From contig NZ_JAVDYB010000001.1 of the NCBI RefSeq assembly GCF_031458235.1, forward strand, positions 5,008,001 to 5,072,000: DNA of 64,000 nucleotides. Direction: 5' to 3'. The notes below the pieces were generated by a model. That model made no database searches. It saw only the letters and a list, made by a program, of their open reading frames with translations, and was not told where the DNA came from. Of the stretch, positions 53,854-62,717 are shown one piece after another (position 1 is the first letter of the stretch; every line of letters starts with the position of its first letter). A program made the position numbers and the translations under genes. This DNA is from Catenuloplanes atrovinosus. GTDB lineage: Bacteria > Actinomycetota > Actinomycetes > Mycobacteriales > Micromonosporaceae.

Positions 53854-54399
53854 TCAGTCCCGAGCCCTGGGATCGCCGTGACGTCCTGCGGACCCCTGAC
53901 CGCGGCATCCAGGGCTTCCGGAGCCGATCACCGTTCGGCGGCCTTGCCCGCCTCGGGGAACGCTGGCCGGTGTACCGCCGCCGGTACGCCCGGTCCTGAT
54001 GACGTCGTCCGGTCGGGGCGGGCCAGACCGGAGGGCGGCGATGCGCGCGGCGCGGGCGGCCAAGCCGTCGAAGACGTCTTCTGCGGGCACCGGCATGAGG
54101 GCCGATAGGGCGCCGGTCACGTCCGGCAGGTGACTGGCTCGGGCGGGAATCCAGCGTGATCGGCCGTAGAACAGCAGGTGGCGCGGTGCGCTGTCGAGGG
54201 AGGCGTGGGTGATGAATAGGCCGTTGCTTCCCAGTAGCGTCGGCAGCGCGTGGTGCATCGCCCAGGCGAGCGCGGGCAGTTCAGCGCGCAGGCGCGCGAG
54301 ATCTGCGCGCCGCTGCTGGTCATCGCCGGAAACGGGCGGGGGAAGGTCGCGGACCCGGATGTTGGTAGGGAATGTGTCACCAGATCCAAACGGCGGTGA
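53854..54399 (-). pseudogene. Hypothetical gene truncated at the inverted-repeat edge
   Basis: The frame is open from a TGA inside the repeat edge (54400) and reads T-F-P-T-N-I-R-V-R-D-L, Q-Q-R-R-A-D-L-A-R-L-R-A-E-L-P-A-L-A-W, G-L-F-I-T-H-A-S-L-D and R-H-L-L-F-Y-G-R-S-R-W. It then becomes low-complexity. The first Met is internal (54258). The coding signal begins right where the large inverted repeat ends, so the native start was probably lost in the rearrangement. Family unknown. Confidence 0.5.
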
Positions 54400-54456
54400 T
54401 CACATCTGCTCGACGTGATCGGCGCGATCTCCTCGAGTGGGGTTGAAGGCTGGTGG

Positions 54457-56460
54457 TCAGGGGTTGGCCCGGTGGATGACTGCGGTGCCTTTGGCGGTCA
54501 GGATGCCGGCGTGTTGCAGGGGGGTCAGGATGGTGATGATCTCGGTCATTACCGAGGTGCGGGCGGTGCCCTCGAGTGTGTCGGCCAGTGCTGCGAGGGT
54601 CACGCTCAGCTCTTCGGCGAGGTCGACGCGGGCTGGTTCCTGGTGTAGCAGCGTCCGGCGGGTGTGCGCGGCGCGGCGCAGGAGCGTTCTGGCCTCCTCC
54701 ATCCGGCCTGCCCTGACGGCCAGGTCACCCAGCCGCTCGTAGGAGATGGACAGGTCGCGGGCGTAGCCGGTGTTGTCCGGCTCGGCGGCGGCCAGCCGCT
54801 CGCGGATGGTCAGGGCCTGCTGGTACAGGCCGGCGGCCCGCTCACCCTGCCCCACCGCCACGGCCAGGTCACCCAGCCGCTCGTAGGAGACGGACAGGTC
54901 GCGGGCGTGGCCGGCGTTGTCCGGCTCGGCGGCGGCCAACTGCTCGGCGATGGTCAGGGCCTGCTGGTACAGGCCGGCGGCCCGCTCACCCTGTCCCACC
55001 ACCACAGCCAGGTCACCCAGCTTGTTGTAGGAGACGGCCAGGTCGCGGGCGTGGCCGGTGTTGTCCGGCTCGACCGCGGCCAGCCGCTCGCGGATGGTCA
55101 GGGACTGCTGGTACAGGCCGGCGGCCCGCTCACCCTGCCCCACCGCCCGCGCCAGGTCACCCAGCCGCTCGTAGGAGACGGACAGGTCGCGGGCGTAGCC
55201 GGTGTTGTCCGGCTCGACCGCGGCCAGCCGCTCGCGGATGGTCAGGGCCTGCTGGTACAGGCCGGCGGCCCGCTCACCCTGCCCCACCACCACAGCCAAA
55301 TCACCCAGCTTGTTGTAGGAGACGGCCAGGTCCCGGGCGTAGCCGGTGTTGTCCGGCTCGACCACGGCCAACCGCTCGACGATGGTCAAGGCCTGCTGGT
55401 ACAGGCCGGCGGCCCGCTCACCCTGCCCCACCGCCCGCGCCAGGTCACCCAGCCGCTCGTAGGAGACGGCCAGGCCCCGGGCGTAGCCGGTGTTGTCCGG
55501 CTCGGCGGCGGCCAACTGCTCGCGGATGGTCAGGGCCTGCTGGTACAGGCCGGCGGCCCGCTCACCCTGCCCCACCGCCCGCGCCAGGTCACCCAGCCGG
55601 TTGTAGGAGACGGACAGGTCCCGGGCGTAGCCGGTGTTGTCCGGCTCGGCGGCGGCCAGCCGCTCGCGGATGGTCAGGGCCTGCTGGTACAGGCCGGCGG
55701 CCCGCTCACCCTGCCCCACCGCCACGGCCAAATCACCCAGCTTGTTGTAGGAGACGGACAGGTCGCGGGCGTAGCCGGTGTTGTCCGGCTCGACCACGGC
55801 CAACTGCTCGCGGATGGTCAGGGCCTGCTGGTACAGGCCGGCGACCCGCTCACCCTGCCCCACCGCCACGGCCAGGTCACCCAGCCGCTCGTAGGAGACG
55901 GACAGGTCGCGGGCGTGGCCGGTGTTGTCCGGCTCGACCACGGCCAACTGCTCGCGGATGGTCAGGGCCTGCTGGTACAGGCCGGCGGCCCGCTCACCCT
56001 GCCCCACCGCCCGCGCCAGGTCACCCAGCCGCTCGTAGGAGACGGCCAGGCCCCGGGCGTAGCCGGTGTTGTCCGGCTCGGCGGCGGCCAACCGCTCGCG
56101 GATGGTCAAGGCCTGCTGGTACAGGCCGGCGGCCCGCTCACCCTGCCCCACCGCCCGCGCCAGGTCACCCAGCCGGTCGTAGGAGACGGACAGGTCCCGG
56201 GCGTAGCCGGTGTTGCCTGGCTCGGTGACGTGTCTGCGCTGGTCGATGAGGAATGCGGTGATGAAGATGGTTTGGGCGTCGGCGGCGCGGCCATGGTCGC
56301 GGGCGAAGATTCCGAGGGTGTCCGCAGCTTGGCTGAGCTGGTGTTGGACGGTGGGTGGGAGCGCGGCGACGCGGGTGTCGGTCAGCAGCGCGGCGTGAGC
56401 ACGGCACAACGCATCCAGCAGACCGGCGCGGTGGACGGTGCCGGATCGGGCTGGCGTCAT
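54457..56460 (-). CDS. TPR protein with ten 48-residue repeats
   Basis: 667 residues: a unique N-terminal domain (1-85, helical), ten uninterrupted 48-residue units (86-565) each built as A-R-D-L-S-V-S-Y-E-R-L-G-D-L-A then G-E-R-A-A-G-L-Y-Q-Q-A-L-T-I, and a C-terminal domain (566-667). Every unit is a TPR-type helix pair plus linker, varying only at a few positions (R/V, E/N, K/R). Such arrays bind partner proteins or act as sensors in STAND-based conflict systems. It is the long version of the gene at 59134. No complete gene precedes it on its strand; only a coding stub matching the end of the protease gene remains upstream. Confidence 0.9.
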   Translation of the reverse strand: MTPARSGTVHRAGLLDALCRAHAALLTDTRVAALPPTVQHQLSQAADTLGIFARDHGRAADAQTIFITAFLIDQRRHVTEPGNTGYARDLSVSYDRLGDLARAVGQGERAAGLYQQALTIRERLAAAEPDNTGYARGLAVSYERLGDLARAVGQGERAAGLYQQALTIREQLAVVEPDNTGHARDLSVSYERLGDLAVAVGQGERVAGLYQQALTIREQLAVVEPDNTGYARDLSVSYNKLGDLAVAVGQGERAAGLYQQALTIRERLAAAEPDNTGYARDLSVSYNRLGDLARAVGQGERAAGLYQQALTIREQLAAAEPDNTGYARGLAVSYERLGDLARAVGQGERAAGLYQQALTIVERLAVVEPDNTGYARDLAVSYNKLGDLAVVVGQGERAAGLYQQALTIRERLAAVEPDNTGYARDLSVSYERLGDLARAVGQGERAAGLYQQSLTIRERLAAVEPDNTGHARDLAVSYNKLGDLAVVVGQGERAAGLYQQALTIAEQLAAAEPDNAGHARDLSVSYERLGDLAVAVGQGERAAGLYQQALTIRERLAAAEPDNTGYARDLSISYERLGDLAVRAGRMEEARTLLRRAAHTRRTLLHQEPARVDLAEELSVTLAALADTLEGTARTSVMTEIITILTPLQHAGILTAKGTAVIHRANP
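54766..56205 (-). repeat. Tandem array of ten 144-bp TPR units
   Basis: Ten near-identical 144-base units in frame with the 54457 gene. Differences between units are scattered single bases, and some units share the same variants, consistent with unequal recombination. The matching gene at 59134 has one unit. Confidence 0.95.
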
Positions 56461-56560
56461 CGGCCGGGCTCCCCGGATAAGGACTGATCAAGCCGAGTTG
56501 CTTCGGCTAGTTCGGACAGAGTACGTGACGGTGGTGGTCGAGGGGTGTGCTACCGCAGGG
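56461..56560 (-). pseudogene. Coding stub of a second protease-STAND gene
   Basis: In the minus direction the sequence just before the long TPR gene reads S-R-T-L-S-E-L-A-E-A-T-R-L-D-Q-S-L-S-G-E then P-G-R-stop. Its last 12 codons match the end of the 57155 gene (G-Q-S-S-S-G-E-P-G-R) and keep the same ATGA overlap. The long TPR gene therefore once followed a gene of that kind. The frame is closed by a TAG further upstream. Confidence 0.55.
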
Positions 56561-56803
56561 GGATTCCGTCGTCCGATCGGCTGGGTGCCGCGCTGTTCGT
56601 CGTCTCGCACCGGTACGGGTGTCCATGGTGTGCTGTGGGGCACGGTGGTTGATGCTGCTTATGACGTTGACCTCTGGTGGTGTCGGCTTGCCGACTGGGC
56701 GACGGCTTTGCCTCGCGGAGGTGGGAGCGGGAGGCTATCGGGGCGCTGCTGAATGTGGTGGCGCGGTGACGTATCCGCTTCGGGGCGGGAAGGGGCAGTC
56801 GGG
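56491..56803. other. Intergenic region upstream of the protease operon
   Basis: About 310 bases between the divergent units. Apart from the stub at its left edge I see no gene. It must contain the promoter of the trypco1-protease-TPR operon; no clear operator palindrome was noticed. Confidence 0.4.
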
Positions 56804-57148
56804 GTGAGTCAGCCGGGGCCGGTGCGGGCCAAGCATGTGGAACGAGTGCGGACCGGAGGGGCAGAGTTCTTTGTGGAACTCGCGGACGGCGGCGGGCCAC
56901 AGACGGTCGGAGCGGACCGGTCGTTGTCCTTCGACGGTGTCCGGGACACGGTGCGGGCGGTGGCGGAACAATTGGGCGAGGTGTGGGAGGCGGTCCGCCC
57001 GGCAGAGGCAAGTGTGGAGTTCGGTCTGTCGTTGACGGCGAAGTCGGGGAAGCTGACCGGTCTGCTGGTCGCCGCCGACGGCGCGGCGAGTTTGAAGGTG
57101 ACGTTGGTCTGGAAGAAACCGGGCACGGAACCGGACGGCCGGGAGTGA
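56804..57148 (+). CDS. CU044_2847-like trypsin-co-occurring domain 1 protein
   Basis: 114 residues from the GTG at 56804 (VSQPGPVRAKHVERVR). The pattern E-F-F-V-E-L, L-S-F-D-G-V-R-D-T-V-R-A-V-A-E-Q-L-G, A-S-V-E-F-G-L-S-L-T-A-K-S-G-K-L-T-G-L-L and S-L-K-V-T-L-V-W-K-K is that of the small protein family which regularly precedes trypsin-STAND genes in actinomycetes. It is thought to be an adaptor or substrate of the protease. Only six bases separate it from the protease start. Function otherwise unknown. Confidence 0.75.
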   Translation: MSQPGPVRAKHVERVRTGGAEFFVELADGGGPQTVGADRSLSFDGVRDTVRAVAEQLGEVWEAVRPAEASVEFGLSLTAKSGKLTGLLVAADGAASLKVTLVWKKPGTEPDGRE

Positions 57149-57154
57149 GCGGCG

Positions 57155-59137
57155 GTGCGCACGCGGATTGATGCGCGCCAGCTGCGCCGTCATGTGGTGC
57201 GGATCGACCGGGTCGACGGCACCGGCGTGTGCGGTACCGGATTCTTCGTTGCTCCTGGGTGGGTGTTGACCGCCGCGCACGTGGTCTATGACGACGACAG
57301 CGGGGCCCCGCTGTCGCAGGTGATGGTGGTGCCTGCCGATCCGGCGGTGGGTGAGCAGGGCGTGCGGGCGGAGGTCGCGTCGCGGTCAGTGCCGCCTGTC
57401 GCGCCCGGTGGATTGTGGCCGTTTCCAGATCTGGCGCTGCTGCAACTGCAGCCGGACGCCGAGTGGGTGGCGATCCATCCGTGCGTATGGCTGGTGGGTG
57501 AAGACCCGCTCGGCGAGACGTGTCACGCGTTCGGTTTTCCGCCCCGGGATGAGGGGATACCGCCGGGGGCACCGGCGTCGTTCGTGTTCGAGGGTGTAAC
57601 CGGTGACGGTTTCCTGCAGTTGAAGGCGGGGCAAGCGGCGCCAGGGCTGTCCGGGGCTCCGCTGGTATGCCCGGCCCGGCGAGCGGTTGTCGGCGTGGTG
57701 ACCGCGACCCGGGATCGGTACACCGACCTGGGCGGATGGGCCGCTCCCGTGGCCGCGCTGCTACCGGACCAGACCGGTGGATTGCCGGGAGCCGCGTCCG
57801 GGGTGTCGGACGATCTGGCCACGCTGGGCGGGAAGATCGCGGCGGCGGGCCAGGCCGCGGTGCTGGCCGCCCGGTCGCTCTGGCATGCGGTGCTGCCCGT
57901 TGACGGTGCCGAGCGGCTGGTGGACCAGCCGTGGATCGAGGCGCAGGTGACCCCCGGTGTCGGACAACCCTCGACGATGCTGCGCCCGGAGTTCGCGGTC
58001 GTGGACTACCTGTTCCGCGGCGACGCCCTCGACGTCGTCGCCGCCTGGTGTGAGCAACCGGAGCGGTTGTCGGTTCGCTACATCGACGCTGCAGGCGGTG
58101 CCGGCAAGACCCGCTTCGCGATCGAGGCCTGCCGGGCGCAACGGGCGCATGGCTGGGTGGCGGGCCTGCTCCCCGCCACCGGCGGACACCTCGAGGATCT
58201 ACCGCTACCGCGGCTACTGGTGGTCGACTACGTCGAGGAACGCGACGCGGAAGCCCTCGCCGCCACATTGACCGCATTGAGCCGCCCGGAGTCGGCGTCG
58301 GCACTGGCGCCGGTCCGGGTACTACTCCTCAGCCGCCCGGCCGCCGGGACGGCGGCCGGGCATACCTGGGACCCATTGCGGGCGGTCGCTGCTGGCGCCA
58401 CCCTGATGGCGCTGGACGCCGCCACCGACACCCCCACCGCAGTGACCGGGCTTACCAGCCCGCAACGACACGACCTATTCACCGCAGGCCTGACAGCGTT
58501 CGGCCAGACCTGGCACGGCCCCGGCTGGACCGCCCCGCAGCCGACGGTACAGCTGACAGGCCCGCACTACGACCGGCCGCTGGACGTGCTGCTGGAGGCG
58601 TTCGACGCGGCCCTGTCCGGCCCGCACTGGAAGCCTGACTCCCGCCCACCGGTGGACCGCGCCCTGGACCACGAGGCCCGACGGTGGACAGCCCGCCTCC
58701 CCGACCTCGACCCGGACCTGCTCCGCCTGTGCGTAGCCCTGGCCACCCTGGCCGGCGCCCGCGACGACACCGAAGCCCACACCCTGCTGGACCTGATCCC
58801 CGACCTCACCGATCCACAGATCCGCAGCCGGGTCGACCAGTGGCTACATCACCTGTATCCCGGACCCGACCGGTGGAACCCGCTGCGCCCCGACCGACTC
58901 GGCGAAGCCCTCATCGCCCACGTCCTGACCAACCAACCCGACGGCGGACTGACCCTACTTCACCAGGTCCTGGACCTGCCCTCCGACGCCCAGGTAGTAC
59001 GGGCCCTCGACGTCCTGGTCCGCCTAGCCACCCACCACAGCGTCGTCGACACCGCCGCCACCGCGTTCGCTAACCGCTACACCCGCCTCACCGCGCGTCT
59101 GCTTGGTCAGTCCTCATCGGGGGAGCCCGGCCGATGA
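57155..59137 (+). CDS. Trypsin-like protease fused to STAND NTPase
   Basis: 660 residues. Residues 10-210 are a trypsin-like domain with His42 (T-A-A-H-V-V), Asp92 (F-P-D-L-A-L-L) and Ser166 (P-G-L-S-G-A-P-L). A P-loop NTPase follows with G-G-A-G-K-T-R near residue 313 and Walker B L-L-V-V-D-Y near 355, as in STAND switches, then a helical C-terminal part. There is no signal peptide, so it acts in the cytoplasm. The likely mode is signal-dependent NTP binding that activates proteolysis of self or target proteins, as proposed for multi-domain conflict systems. The stop overlaps the TPR gene by four bases, so both are made together. Confidence 0.85.
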   Translation: MRTRIDARQLRRHVVRIDRVDGTGVCGTGFFVAPGWVLTAAHVVYDDDSGAPLSQVMVVPADPAVGEQGVRAEVASRSVPPVAPGGLWPFPDLALLQLQPDAEWVAIHPCVWLVGEDPLGETCHAFGFPPRDEGIPPGAPASFVFEGVTGDGFLQLKAGQAAPGLSGAPLVCPARRAVVGVVTATRDRYTDLGGWAAPVAALLPDQTGGLPGAASGVSDDLATLGGKIAAAGQAAVLAARSLWHAVLPVDGAERLVDQPWIEAQVTPGVGQPSTMLRPEFAVVDYLFRGDALDVVAAWCEQPERLSVRYIDAAGGAGKTRFAIEACRAQRAHGWVAGLLPATGGHLEDLPLPRLLVVDYVEERDAEALAATLTALSRPESASALAPVRVLLLSRPAAGTAAGHTWDPLRAVAAGATLMALDAATDTPTAVTGLTSPQRHDLFTAGLTAFGQTWHGPGWTAPQPTVQLTGPHYDRPLDVLLEAFDAALSGPHWKPDSRPPVDRALDHEARRWTARLPDLDPDLLRLCVALATLAGARDDTEAHTLLDLIPDLTDPQIRSRVDQWLHHLYPGPDRWNPLRPDRLGEALIAHVLTNQPDGGLTLLHQVLDLPSDAQVVRALDVLVRLATHHSVVDTAATAFANRYTRLTARLLGQSSSGEPGR

Positions 59138-59902
59138 CGCCAGCCCGATCCGGCACCGTCCACCGCGCCGGTCTGCTGGATGCGTTGTGCCGCGCTCACG
59201 CCGCGCTGCTGACCGACACCCGCGTCGCCGCGCTCCCACCCACCGTCCAACACCAGCTCAGCCAAGCTGCGGACACCCTCGGAATCTTCGCCCGCGACCA
59301 TGGCCGCGCCGCCGACGCCCAAACCATCTTCATCACCGCATTCCTCATCGACCAGCGCAGACACGTCACCGAGCCAGGCAACACCGGCTACGCCCGGGAC
59401 CTGTCCGTCTCCTACGACCGGCTGGGTGACCTGGCGCGGGCGGTGGGACAGGGTGAGCGGGCCGCCGGCCTGTACCAGCAGGCCCTGACCATCCGCGAGC
59501 GGCTGGCCGCCGCCGAGCCGGACAACACCGGCCACGCCCGCGACCTGTCCATCTCCTACGAGCGGCTGGGTGACCTGGCCGTCAGGGCAGGCCGGATGGA
59601 GGAGGCCAGAACGCTCCTGCGCCGCGCCGCGCACACCCGCCGGACGCTGCTACACCAGGAACCAGCCCGCGTCGACCTCGCCGAAGAGCTGAGCGTGACC
59701 CTCGCAGCACTGGCCGACACACTCGAGGGCACCGCCCGCACCTCGGTAATGACCGAGATCATCACCATCCTGACCCCCCTGCAACACGCCGGCATCCTGA
59801 CCGCCAAAGGCACCGCAGTCATCCACCGGGCCAACCCCTGACCACCAGCCTTCAACCCCACCCGAGGAGATCGCGCCGATCACGTCGAGCAGATGTGATC
59901 AC
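59103..59902 (+). repeat. Inverted repeat arm B (short TPR copy)
   Basis: Counterpart of arm A at 54396-56490. Similarity starts inside the last codons of the protease gene and ends at GTGATCAC (59895-59902), immediately before the IS256 left end. Confidence 0.9.
59134..59841 (+). CDS. TPR protein with one 48-residue repeat
   Basis: 235 residues: the same 85-residue N-terminal domain and 102-residue C-terminal domain as the 54457 protein (Tyr/His difference at the first residue of the C-terminal part), with one 48-residue unit between them. The length difference is exactly nine units. It is coupled to the protease-STAND gene by an ATGA overlap, so it is the current partner of that protease. 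A single TPR pair is unlikely to present the same binding surface as ten, so the two versions should differ in ligand or threshold. Confidence 0.9.
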   Translation: MTPARSGTVHRAGLLDALCRAHAALLTDTRVAALPPTVQHQLSQAADTLGIFARDHGRAADAQTIFITAFLIDQRRHVTEPGNTGYARDLSVSYDRLGDLARAVGQGERAAGLYQQALTIRERLAAAEPDNTGHARDLSISYERLGDLAVRAGRMEEARTLLRRAAHTRRTLLHQEPARVDLAEELSVTLAALADTLEGTARTSVMTEIITILTPLQHAGILTAKGTAVIHRANP

Positions 59903-61306
59903 GGGTCCGTACCTAGATCGGTGTTTCCGGCTCTTGGTTAGTAGGTTTCGGCGGCCGGCCAGCGGTCACCGAAGGTGATGGCGAAGGCGTTCAGCACGGG
60001 CTTCCAGCGCATCGTCCATCGGGCGCGGCCGGTCCCTGTGGGTCCAGGCTGCGGGTCACAAGATACAGGCACTTCAGCGCGGCCTGCTCGCTCGGGAAAT
60101 GTCCTCGAGCGCGTACGGCCCTGCGATAGCGGGCGTTCAACGACTCGATCGCGTTCGTGGAACAGATCACTTTCCTGATCTCGACGTCGTAGTCAAGGAA
60201 CGGGATGAACTCGTTCCATGCGTTACGCCATAGCCGGATCATCGCCCGGTATTTCGTGCCCCATTTCTCTTCCAGGTCGTCTAGGGCGGCAGCCGCGGCG
60301 TCCGCGTTGACGGCGGTGTAGATCGGCCGGATATCACGCTTGATCGCGTCCGCGTCGGCCCGGGACGTCAGCCGGAACGTATTCCTGATCAAGTGGATGA
60401 TGCATGTTTGGACGATGGCGTGCGGCCAGACCGCTTCGACGCTGTCGGGCAGCCCTTTCAACCCGTCGCAGACGACGAAGAACACATCGGCCACGCCGCG
60501 GTTCTTCAGATCGATCAGGACGCTGAGCCAGAATTTGGCGCCCTCGCCGCTGGTGCCGGCCCACAGGCCCAGGACGTCCTTGCGGCCGTCCACGGTGACG
60601 CCGATGGCGGCGTAGATGGGCCGGTTCGCGACCTGGCCGTCCCGAACCTTGATCACGATGGCGTCGACGAACACGGCCGCGTACACGCGGTCCAGGGGCC
60701 GCGATGACCATTCCGTCATCTCCGCGACGACTTTGTCGGTGATCCGCGAAACGGTCTCTTTCGACACCGACGCGCCATAGATCTCCGCGAAATGCGCGGA
60801 AATCTCCCCGGTCGTCATTCCTTTCGCATACAACGACAGCACGATCTCGTCGACCTCAGTCAACCGCCGTTGCCGCTTCTTCACGATCTGCGGCTCGAAC
60901 GTGCCCTCCCGATCCCGGGGGACCTCGATTCGCACCTCGCCGACAGCGTCCGAGAGGACCGTCTTGCCGCGGCTGCCATTCCGCACATTCGTCGACTCAC
61001 GTCCCGGCTCGGCCTGGTTCTTCTCGTGGCCGAGATGCTCGGTCATCTCCTCGTTCAGCGCGGTCTCAAGCACATTCCTGGTGAACAGCTTCAGCAACCC
61101 GTTCGGACCGGTCAGCTCCAACCCGCGGGCCTTGGCCTCGGCCACCATCGCCGCCGCGGCGGCCTGCTCCGGCGACAGCTGCTGCCCGTCACTATCGATC
61201 TTCTTCCGTGGACTCACAACGTTCGATGTCATCACGCACAGTGCCCATCCCGCCAGGTCTTCAGCCCGGCGTGTCGGGCCGGAAACACCGCTCCTGGCAC
61301 AGTCCC
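59903..61306 (-). mobile_element. IS256-family insertion sequence
   Basis: The element is bounded by imperfect 28-bp inverted repeats (59903-59930 and 61279-61306, sharing CGGTGTTTCCGG), with total length 1404 bases, normal for the family. No 8-bp target duplication is seen: GTGATCAC on the left, TCCGGCGA on the right. The left end touches the end of the TPR inverted repeat exactly. Confidence 0.8.
59938..61235 (-). pseudogene. IS256-family (mutator) transposase, late frameshift
   Basis: From the ATG at 61235: L-L-K-L-F-T-R-N-V-L-E-T-A-L-N-E-E-M-T-E-H-L-G at the start, V-F-V-D-A-I-V-I-K-V-R-D (first Asp), F-F-V-V-C-D-G-L-K-G (second Asp) and C-S-T-N-A-I-E-S-L-N (Glu region). After S-L-D-P near 60048 the frame is wrong. 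One base shifted it continues T-G-R-A-R-W-T-M-R-W-K-P-V-L-N-A-F and ends at 59938. The catalytic residues lie before the shift, so activity is uncertain rather than excluded. Confidence 0.85.
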
Positions 61307-61316
61307 TCCGGCGATG

Positions 61317-62136
61317 TCAGCCGACTGCTCGATGTGCCGACCACGCCTCGGCGGCCTCCGCTAGCGGAAGATGATGCGGGGCTGCGATGGTTTGATGCCA
61401 TCCGCGCCAGAGGTCAGCCGCGGCGGCGGCGAAGCAGTCCAGTGCGTACGGTGTGGCGCCCTGCCAGGCCTCGGCCACGCTAACAACATCCTCGGCCGCG
61501 GCTGGGGTGTGGCCGGCGCGGATGAGCCTGATGATGAGTAGTGCGTACGGGATCCAGGGTGCGCCGATGCACGGGTTGGTCCAGTCGATGACCCAGGCGT
61601 GCCCGTCGTGGACGAGTAGGTTTCGTGGGGTCAGGTCGGTGTGGATGAGGGTGTCGCCGGTGACGGCGTCTGGTGGGATCCGGTCGGCCCATCTGCGCGA
61701 GAATGGCAGCTTCCGCGGGTGCAGGTGTCAACGCGTGGGTGAGGTCGTCGAGGGCCACGAGGACCGGCGCGATGTCGGGCGAGGCGGGGCTGAGGTCGGC
61801 GTGCCGGCCGGGGGCGTAGCGGTATCCGTGTAGCAGCCAACCCTCCGACGCGACCTCCCACCGCAGCCGCGGCACTCTGCCGGCCGGAAGCAGCGTGTTG
61901 AGTGCGGCCTCTCGGCGGTGCCCGCGTACCGCGTGCGGGTTGGCCGTACGCGTGTCGATGCCCTTGACGAAGATCCGCTCGTGCGCGGTGGTCAGGACCG
62001 TGGCGATATCGGCTACGGAGCCCGCCGCCAGATCCTCGACCGTGCGGATGTCCCCGGTTTCGCGCTGCACGGCAGCACGTACTCGTGGGGGAAGGTCGGA
62101 CCACTGGCGGCGGGGCACTCTTTGATTCTCCTGCAC
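61317..62136 (-). pseudogene. Aminoglycoside-phosphotransferase-family gene, one frameshift
   Basis: From a GTG at 62136 the frame gives a normal N-lobe (E-R-I-F-V-K-G-I-D with the ATP Lys, W-L-L-H-G-Y-R-Y) up to A-A-I-L-A-Q near 61700. One base shifted, the C-lobe follows: W-A-D-R-I-P, then T-L-I-H-T-D-L-T-P-R-N-L-L-V (catalytic loop) and W-V-I-D-W-T-N (metal Asp). It ends A-W-S-A-H-R-A-V-G at 61317, 11 bases from the IS256 end. If the shift is an error this is a complete, active-looking kinase of about 270 residues. Confidence 0.75.
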
Positions 62137-62207
62137 GCTGGCGTAACCGGGCTTCGCCGAGCATAGGACGTGCCCCGTCGGACGGCGGGCTGCCGTCTCG
62201 TGTCTGG

Positions 62208-62717
62208 TCAGCGCGTGGGACGGTCGGTGCACCCCGAGTGGCATTGGGTGCAGTCGGCGGTGCCGCCGCTGGTCCACAACGGCAGGTCAAGCCGGTAGCC
62301 CGCGGTCACGATTGCGGCCGTCGCAGCGGTCAGCGGCAGGCCGTTGCCGGTATCGCTCGGGTCGTCGGGGAGGTGGTGGATGAAGCGTCCAGCGATGCGC
62401 TGGCAGAGGCCGGCGTACGCCGCGGTGTCCAGGATGAGGGTGTGCCAGCCGATGTCGACGAGCCGGGACGGGCCGATCGGTGTCGTCGTCACGGCGCAGG
62501 CGCCGAGGAATGCCAGGGCCTGATCGAGGATCCGGGCCGGCATGTCATCGGTGAGGTCGGGATGGTCCGCGGCGATGCGGGCCGTCAGGACGGTGAACAG
62601 TGCGGGATCGATCAGGTTCCGGCCGGACCGGGCGGCCGGGTCGGGTGATTCGTCCGGCCAGCACGCGGCGTCCGCGGTGACGGTGCCGTGGCCGATGAGA
62701 GTGACCGTGGGGTTCAC
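62208..62717 (-). CDS. Glycine-rich-domain-type protein
   Basis: 169 residues from a GTG at 62717, with GGAGGA four bases upstream. The centre L-V-D-I-G-W-H-T-L-I-L-D-T-A-A-Y-A-G-L-C and the following F-I-H-H-L-P-D-D are the hallmark of actinomycete proteins annotated as glycine-rich domain-containing. These usually neighbour XRE regulators and phosphotransferases, as here. The C-terminus has C-T-Q-C-H-S-G-C, a likely metal site. Function unknown. It is divergent from the XRE remnant across a palindrome. Confidence 0.65.
   Translation of the reverse strand: MNPTVTLIGHGTVTADAACWPDESPDPAARSGRNLIDPALFTVLTARIAADHPDLTDDMPARILDQALAFLGACAVTTTPIGPSRLVDIGWHTLILDTAAYAGLCQRIAGRFIHHLPDDPSDTGNGLPLTAATAAIVTAGYRLDLPLWTSGGTADCTQCHSGCTDRPTR

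What the first reader, a model, noticed from the sequence alone, without database searches (positions are those of the whole stretch)
54396..59902. Invertible-looking cassette: one protease-STAND operon between a 10-repeat and a 1-repeat copy of the same TPR gene
The TPR genes at 54457 (-) and 59134 (+) share the same first 85 and last 102 residues and differ by exactly nine 48-residue units (1296 bp). They lie as inverted arms around the trypco1 and trypsin-STAND genes. Recombination between the arms would flip the 2.6-kb middle and connect the protease gene, through the same ATGA overlap, to the ten-repeat TPR instead of the one-repeat TPR. This would be a phase switch that changes the sensor or partner of a conflict system. 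I know of no description of this arrangement.
Basis: partly seen in the sequence, partly recalled or inferred. Interest (0 to 1): 0.9.

Follow-up and report, generated by a model that had tools for sequence, protein, structure and literature searches.

The report
Rearranged NLR-like protease locus, inverted sensor copy
In this bacterium a predicted NLR-like immune protease, whose repeat sensor is part of the same protein in its relatives, has that sensor as a separate gene present twice, a ten-repeat and a one-repeat copy lying as mirror images, so the DNA between them could flip, but nothing yet shows that it does.

Summary
Two TPR genes lie as inverted arms (54396-56496, -; 59098-59902, +) around trypco1 and a trypsin-STAND gene and differ by nine 144-bp units. 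One correction: the last 101, not 102, residues are identical. In relatives the TPR array is the C-terminal part of the trypsin-STAND protein: 7 of 7 loci with a readable junction are one ORF (4 of 11 loci not countable), and one of the two closest has exactly ten units. 0 of 11 related loci carry an inverted copy. Here the polypeptide is split at an ATGA overlap, the sensor gene is duplicated inverted, and the operon copy looks like a nine-unit deletion. The right arm ends on the first base of a Mutator-type insertion element without target duplication, so its original extent is lost. Flipping by general recombination is geometrically possible. It would turn nothing off; it would swap which sensor follows the protease, and crossovers inside units would redistribute 11 units. 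No site-specific recombinase was recognised in 34 window ORFs, and no second orientation or recurrence was found. I read it as a rearranged NLR-like sensor locus; the phase switch is possible but unsupported.

The parts
54396..56496 (-). left inverted arm: TPR10 gene, its 61-nt 3' flank and a 36-nt leader related to the 3' end of the protease gene
54457..56460 (-). TPR10: 667-aa protein, 85-aa N part (56206-56460), ten 48-aa units (54766-56205), terminal unit and C part (54457-54765); predicted TPR superhelix
   Evidence: Pfam TPR_12 E 1.6e-31; units; AlphaFold2 mean pLDDT 86.7 from the single sequence
56461..56752 (.). 36-nt leader of TPR10 plus spacer between the divergent TPR10 and trypco1 ORFs; presumed control region (no sigma-70-like site found)
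56753..57148 (+). Trypco1 (trypsin-co-occurring domain 1) gene; in 9 of 10 relatives homology begins at residue 18 or later (L026 at residue 6), so the true start may lie near 56804
   Evidence: Pfam PF19493 E 1.4e-15; tblastn to relatives
57155..59137 (+). trypsin-like protease fused to a predicted P-loop STAND-type NTPase, 660 aa; H42, D92, S166 and the GGxGKT loop invariant in the 10 aligned sequences
   Evidence: Pfam Trypsin_2; alignment A1; nSTAND_NTPase5 in 5 of 10 members, best E 0.00018, not in the window protein
59098..59902 (+). right inverted arm, cut at 59902 by the insertion element
59134..59841 (+). TPR1: 235-aa protein, same N and C parts, a single unit that looks like an L1/L10 hybrid (59389-59532); its start overlaps the protease stop codon (ATGA)
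59903..61306 (-). Mutator-type (IS256-like; label recalled) insertion element (transposase ORF 59991-61235, TIRs 59903-59931 and 61278-61306), no target duplication; truncates the right arm
   Evidence: Pfam Transposase_mut; TIR 79%; copies with the same ends in sister genome G067; target-site comparison

Best explanation
This is a predicted NLR-like defence protease locus (Trypco1, then trypsin-STAND, then TPR sensor) that has been rearranged in this lineage. Shown by sequence: relatives encode trypsin, STAND and TPR as one protein; here the reading frame is split at an ATGA overlap, the TPR sensor gene exists twice in inverted orientation, the operon copy has one unit against ten, and the right arm ends at an insertion element. 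Inferred: the ten-unit array is the ancestral sensor, the one-unit copy arose by one deletion between unit 1 and unit 10, and the locus works as STAND sensors generally do (recalled), with the TPR superhelix binding a trigger, the NTPase oligomerising and the trypsin domain being activated, now with the sensor supplied as a separate subunit. The near-identical inverted arms allow gene conversion and occasional inversion by general recombination. These would be by-products of the duplication rather than a dedicated switch.
For: In 7 of 7 relatives with TPR and a readable junction the TPR part is in the same ORF as the protease (L025, L026, L027, L028, L029, L030, L034). L025, one of the two closest relatives, has exactly 10 units of 48 aa plus the terminal unit. 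Units of the left array differ from each other by 3-19 of 144 nt, while the arms outside the array differ by 3 nt in 625 after the ATG (1 in 255, 1 in the terminal unit, 1 in the last 295), so the array is older than the duplication. R1 matches unit 1 in its 5' part and unit 10 in its 3' part with one further difference. Trypsin residues and the P-loop are invariant in 10 sequences. 0 of 11 related loci have an inverted copy. IS ends confirmed and no target duplication. Varying unit positions include TPR positions 5, 6, 12, 13 and 33, which are variable or ligand-contact positions of the concave face in PMC1261162.
Against: The function is inferred from domains only. NTPase assignment is weak: no Pfam STAND hit for the window protein, nSTAND_NTPase5 in 5 of 10 members at a threshold of E 1, a profile search of solved structures returned only trypsin-fold proteases (34 sequences), and the AlphaFold2 model failed (mean pLDDT 44). 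PADLOC gave only weak hits and NCBIfam none for the protease. No sister strain is held, so the order of events rests on one genome plus relatives of at most about 70% identity. The hybrid reading of R1 is not unique: unit 4 has the same 3' half as unit 10, and the odd base of R1 also occurs in unit 9. The operon copy could be the later one: a contracted duplicate followed by one inversion, or a misassembly, gives the same map. pN/pS among units is 0.76 (0.64 in L025), so positive selection is not shown.
Confidence: 0.68

Rival explanations
1. Invertible sensor switch. RecA-type recombination between the inverted arms flips trypco1-protease, so that the protease is followed, through the same ATGA, by TPR1 or TPR10. 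Crossovers inside the units redistribute the 11 units as k and 11-k, giving a population of cells with different sensor lengths in the operon.
For: Inverted arms of 482 and 539 nt at 97% flank an open operon. All units are 48 codons in one frame, so crossovers would keep the genes open (inference). The split at ATGA makes sensors exchangeable without fusion. The arm core is nearly identical while the inner 36-nt edge has 4 mismatches (4/36 against 4/769, Fisher p 2e-4), as expected if the core is homogenised by exchange.
Against: No second orientation seen, and none could be looked for. 0 of 11 related loci have the inverted copy. No site-specific recombinase in the window ORFs scanned. A flip would not silence either gene. 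The edge statistic is biased, because the arm end was set where identity falls.
Confidence: 0.12
2. Gene-conversion reservoir: the divergent ten-unit copy is a donor that rewrites the operon sensor, or the reverse, keeping the arms identical and shuffling units.
For: After the ATG, 4 differences in 769 nt against the best mosaic of the left units, against 4 in 36 at the edge. Units are mosaics of a few variants, 10 distinct protein units of 10.
Against: A recent duplication explains the near identity without conversion, and 36 nt is a short edge. The present operon copy carries only one unit, so it shows no sign of being refilled.
Confidence: 0.2
3. Decaying locus: the frame split, the nine-unit deletion and the insertion element mark a defence gene on its way to loss, and TPR1 is a stub.
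For: Split of a gene that is a single ORF in 7 of 7 readable relatives; nine units fewer; IS without target duplication at the arm end; flanking ORFs 53854-54258 and 61480-62277 give no Pfam hit.
Against: All the genes are open, the protease residues and P-loop are kept, the TPR genes have no internal stops, and the ATGA overlap would allow coupled translation.
Confidence: 0.25
4. Assembly artefact: the inverted copy or its orientation is false.
For: Arms of 0.8-2.1 kb with near-identical units are hard to assemble; relative L034 has a run of N inside its array.
Against: The genome is held as one contig. The arms differ in unit number, in 4 leader bases and at a few other positions, so one cannot be a mere copy of the other; only the orientation of the middle could be arbitrary.
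Confidence: 0.08

Closest known systems
Trypco1/trypsin conflict systems of multicellular bacteria (Kaur et al. 2020, PMC7159879; passages seen)
   Same: Trypco1 gene beside a trypsin-like peptidase coupled to a further, NTPase-type module
   Different: In the passages seen, Trypco1/2 go with trypsin fused to VMAP in MoxR-vWA systems; here the trypsin is fused to a STAND-type NTPase with a TPR sensor, and what varies is repeat number and gene arrangement, not a reverse-transcriptase target
Fused trypsin-STAND-TPR proteins of Micromonosporaceae (L025/L035 Micromonospora sp. PLK6-60, L034 Micromonospora sp. NBS 11-29)
   Same: 67-70% identity over trypsin-STAND, Trypco1 upstream, TPR homologous; 48-aa units in L025
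   Different: One polypeptide, no inverted TPR copy
NLRs with internally conserved, length-variable repeats in fungi (Dyrka et al. 2014, PMC4986451; abstract and passages seen)
   Same: STAND-type protein with very similar TPR units; variation at concave-face positions
   Different: There the repeats are fused and vary between alleles, with positive selection reported; here the sensor is split off, held as a long and a short copy in inverted orientation, and positive selection is not shown
Invertible phase-variation loci driven by site-specific recombination, e.g. in Clostridioides difficile (PMC9286219, search listing only)
   Same: DNA between inverted repeats could flip
   Different: Long coding arms, no site-specific recombinase found, no silent state

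Membership tests
Trypco1/trypsin conflict system (Kaur et al. 2020) | Trypco1 gene next to a trypsin-like peptidase gene | tested here: met
   PF19493 E 1.4e-15; Trypsin_2 E 6.2e-11
Trypco1/trypsin conflict system (Kaur et al. 2020) | MoxR-vWA-VMAP partners in the same neighbourhood | tested here: not met
   No VMAP, MoxR-type AAA or vWA hit among the 34 window ORFs scanned (not every ORF was scanned). The relative L025 has a separate Trypco1-trypsin-VMAP operon with an AAA ATPase next door
NLR-like STAND protein | P-loop STAND NTPase | tested here: inconclusive
   Invariant GGxGKT, nSTAND_NTPase5 in 5 of 10 members, none for the window protein itself; no STAND structure in the profile search of solved structures; structure model failed
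NLR-like STAND protein | N-terminal effector and C-terminal superhelical repeat sensor in one polypeptide | tested here: not met
   Met in 7 of 7 readable relatives, split into two genes in the window
NLR-like STAND protein | Trigger-dependent oligomerisation and defence activity | not testable with these tools
   Needs experiment
Invertible phase-variation locus | Inverted repeats long and similar enough to recombine | tested here: met
Invertible phase-variation locus | Both orientations observed | not testable with these tools
   One genome per species, no reads
Invertible phase-variation locus | Dedicated recombinase nearby | tested here: not met
   No site-specific recombinase family among the 34 window ORFs scanned with Pfam (not every ORF was scanned); not required for RecA-type inversion
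Invertible phase-variation locus | Arrangement conserved in relatives | tested here: not met
   0 of 11 related loci with inverted repeats of 60 nt or more
IS256/Mutator insertion element | Mutator-type transposase, terminal inverted repeats, copies with the same ends | tested here: met
   another copy has an 8-bp direct repeat at its ends

The most novel reading that the evidence does not exclude
The locus is a recombinational sensor allocator: splitting the sensor from its NLR-like protease and placing a long and a short copy as inverted arms lets ordinary homologous recombination deal the 11 repeat units in different portions (k and 11-k) to the operon copy and the divergent copy, so cells of one clone carry NLR-like receptors of different sensor length without any dedicated recombinase. 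The signature would be a conserved sum of units across variants.
Probability: 0.08. Interest if true: 0.85.

Novelty: new variant of a known kind. Interest (0 to 1): 0.42.

Why it matters
Rapid repeat change in NLR sensors is documented in fungi (PMC4986451, passages). A bacterial case in which the sensor is split off and held in two lengths in an arrangement that can recombine would give a simple place to measure how such receptors diversify. If the flip is real it would be a recombinase-free way to vary an immune receptor within a clone. If not, it is still a clear record of how an NLR-like gene is taken apart.

Tried and rejected
Duplication being chance or a common feature of this genome: rejected on the window and a 400-kb sample. 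Left array expanded from one unit after duplication: rejected, because units differ far more than the arms. IS-IS recombination as the cause: the DNA search found only one copy of this element in the own genome, so present-day copies cannot explain it. A sequencing slip in the G-run as the cause of the frame split: unlikely, because both arms have the same spacing there although their bases differ. Left and right flanks sharing the lost part of the arm: only short chance-level matches. Clean empty site in sister genomes: the right flank is found in G084 and G067, where the protease gave no match; the left flank is not beside it (nearest piece in G084 about 57 kb away, its best piece megabases away), so there is none. 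TGATCA near both ends of the left arm as a boundary signal: dropped, the word occurs 29 times in the window. AlphaFold2 model of the protease: too poor to use, so no fold search was made with it. Relatives in viral contigs: none in one scan. PADLOC: weak hits only. Sigma-70-like promoters and terminators: 0 found. Literature: the ten searches listed no paper whose title or shown abstract describes inverted sensor copies around a STAND protease; this covers only the held open-access library and the rows listed. Passages were seen in PMC7159879, PMC10907252, PMC4986451, PMC1261162 and PMC8195603; no paper was read whole, all others were seen as listings.
Full report
Observation. The window holds two TPR genes as inverted arms around a Trypco1 gene and a trypsin-STAND gene. 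The arms are 2101 and 805 nt and differ by 1296 nt, nine units of 144 nt. Outside the array, after the ATG, they differ by 1 of 255 nt (N part), 1 of 144 nt in the terminal unit and 1 in the last 295 nt (in the 3' flank); the 36-nt leader differs by 4. The pair is not a common feature: in 20 sampled 20-kb stretches of the same genome (400 kb of 8.9 Mb) no inverted pair of at least 150 nt and 85% was found; the locus stretch L033, scanned with them, gave this one. The genome is held as a single contig and strong matches occur only at these two genes.

What the genes are. The protease ORF has trypsin matches, with H42, D92 and S166 and the GGxGKT loop invariant in the ten aligned sequences; naming these as catalytic triad and Walker A is recalled knowledge. 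A STAND NTPase family (nSTAND_NTPase5) is found in 5 of 10 members at a threshold of E 1 (best 0.00018), not in the window protein itself. Against this, a profile search of solved structures returned only trypsin-fold proteases (34 sequences), and the protease model failed (mean pLDDT 44). So the STAND label is likely, not proven. The TPR10 protein is predicted as a regular two-helix repeat with good confidence from its sequence alone (mean pLDDT 86.7). Foldseek matches it to TPR proteins such as LGN and the TPR domain of OGT (target-normalised TM up to 0.79 and 0.63), though no match covers it well as a whole (query TM at most 0.45 in the rows listed).

Relatives. The protease was sought in 300 genomes of the family (9 matched at E 1e-60, own included), 5 of the genus (1, the own), 394 of the class (2 at E 1e-40, own included) and 397 of the order (8 at E 1e-40, own included); these sets overlap. 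In 7 of 7 loci with TPR and a readable junction (L025, L026, L027, L028, L029, L030, L034) the TPR part continues in the same ORF as the protease; L034 then runs into N. Four of the 11 loci were not counted: L031 has only a weak TPR match, L032 runs off its contig within the TPR part, and L043 and L044 gave no TPR match. Trypco1 lies upstream in 10 of 11 loci, all but L044. 0 of the 11 loci have an inverted repeat of 60 nt or more (8, 3).

History (inferred). L025 has exactly ten 48-aa units and a terminal unit, like TPR10. Left units differ from each other by 3-19 of 144 nt, far more than the arms differ, so the array predates the duplication. R1 equals unit 1 in its 5' part and unit 10 in its 3' part with one further difference, as one deletion of nine units would leave it; unit 4 has the same 3' half and unit 9 the odd base, so other routes are possible. 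Both arms share the split reading frame with the same spacing, so the split probably came before the duplication. The right arm ends at 59902; the next base is the first of a Mutator-type (IS256-like) element whose ends (59903-61306) are those of eight full-length 88% copies in sister genome G067. One of those copies has an 8-bp direct repeat at its ends, the window copy has none. The arm was therefore probably cut there and its original outer limit is unknown. The right flank from 61327-61338 on is found in G084 and G067 at 79%, and the protease gave no match at E 1e-60 in the four sister genomes.

Would a flip be a switch? But both TPR genes are open, and the control region between trypco1 and the divergent TPR gene moves with the middle, so each flip leaves one TPR gene in the operon and one on the divergent side. 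Nothing is turned off. Crossovers between R1 and unit k would redistribute the units as k and 11-k; this is inference from the unit register, not observed.

Signs of exchange. The leader has 4 mismatches in 36 against 4 in 769 after the ATG, the latter counted against the best mosaic of left units (Fisher p 2e-4). This fits homogenisation of the core, but the arm end was set where identity falls, which inflates edge mismatches, and 36 nt is little. I treat it as a hint.

Sensor variation. pN/pS among the ten units is 0.76, and 0.64 in L025, so positive selection is not shown. Varying residues map to TPR positions 1, 5, 6, 12, 13, 20, 27, 31 and 33 (the register is my own assignment). Four of the seven most variable positions of PMC1261162 are among them (p 0.061); adding contact position 6 from the same passage gives 5 of 8 (p 0.017), the six contact positions alone 4 (p 0.031), and common variants only p 0.048 and 0.007. 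These sets were tried after seeing the data, so this is suggestive only. Dyrka et al. report variation on the concave face in fungal NLR TPR repeats (PMC4986451, passages).

Verdict. A predicted NLR-like protease locus, split and with its sensor gene duplicated in inverted orientation. The arrangement is real and unusual; the phase switch is a testable possibility without direct support.

Noticed in passing
L025:1652-4778 (-): One of the two closest relatives has, divergent from the trypsin-STAND-TPR gene, a second Trypco1-trypsin operon whose trypsin protein carries VMAP-C, followed by an AAA ATPase: two Trypco1 systems side by side.
   Followed up: partly
window, whole: TGATCA occurs 29 times against about 4 expected from base composition; GTGATCAC occurs 8 times.
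   Followed up: no
window:42510-42694: Short 15-nt period repeats that look like pentapeptide-repeat coding sequence; the label is recalled, no family search was made there.
   Followed up: no
window:14826-16139 (-): A second trypsin-family protein (Pfam Trypsin E 1e-24).
   Followed up: no
window:35202-36116 (-): Transposase-type integrase core (rve) ORF, a second mobile-element trace in the window.
   Followed up: no
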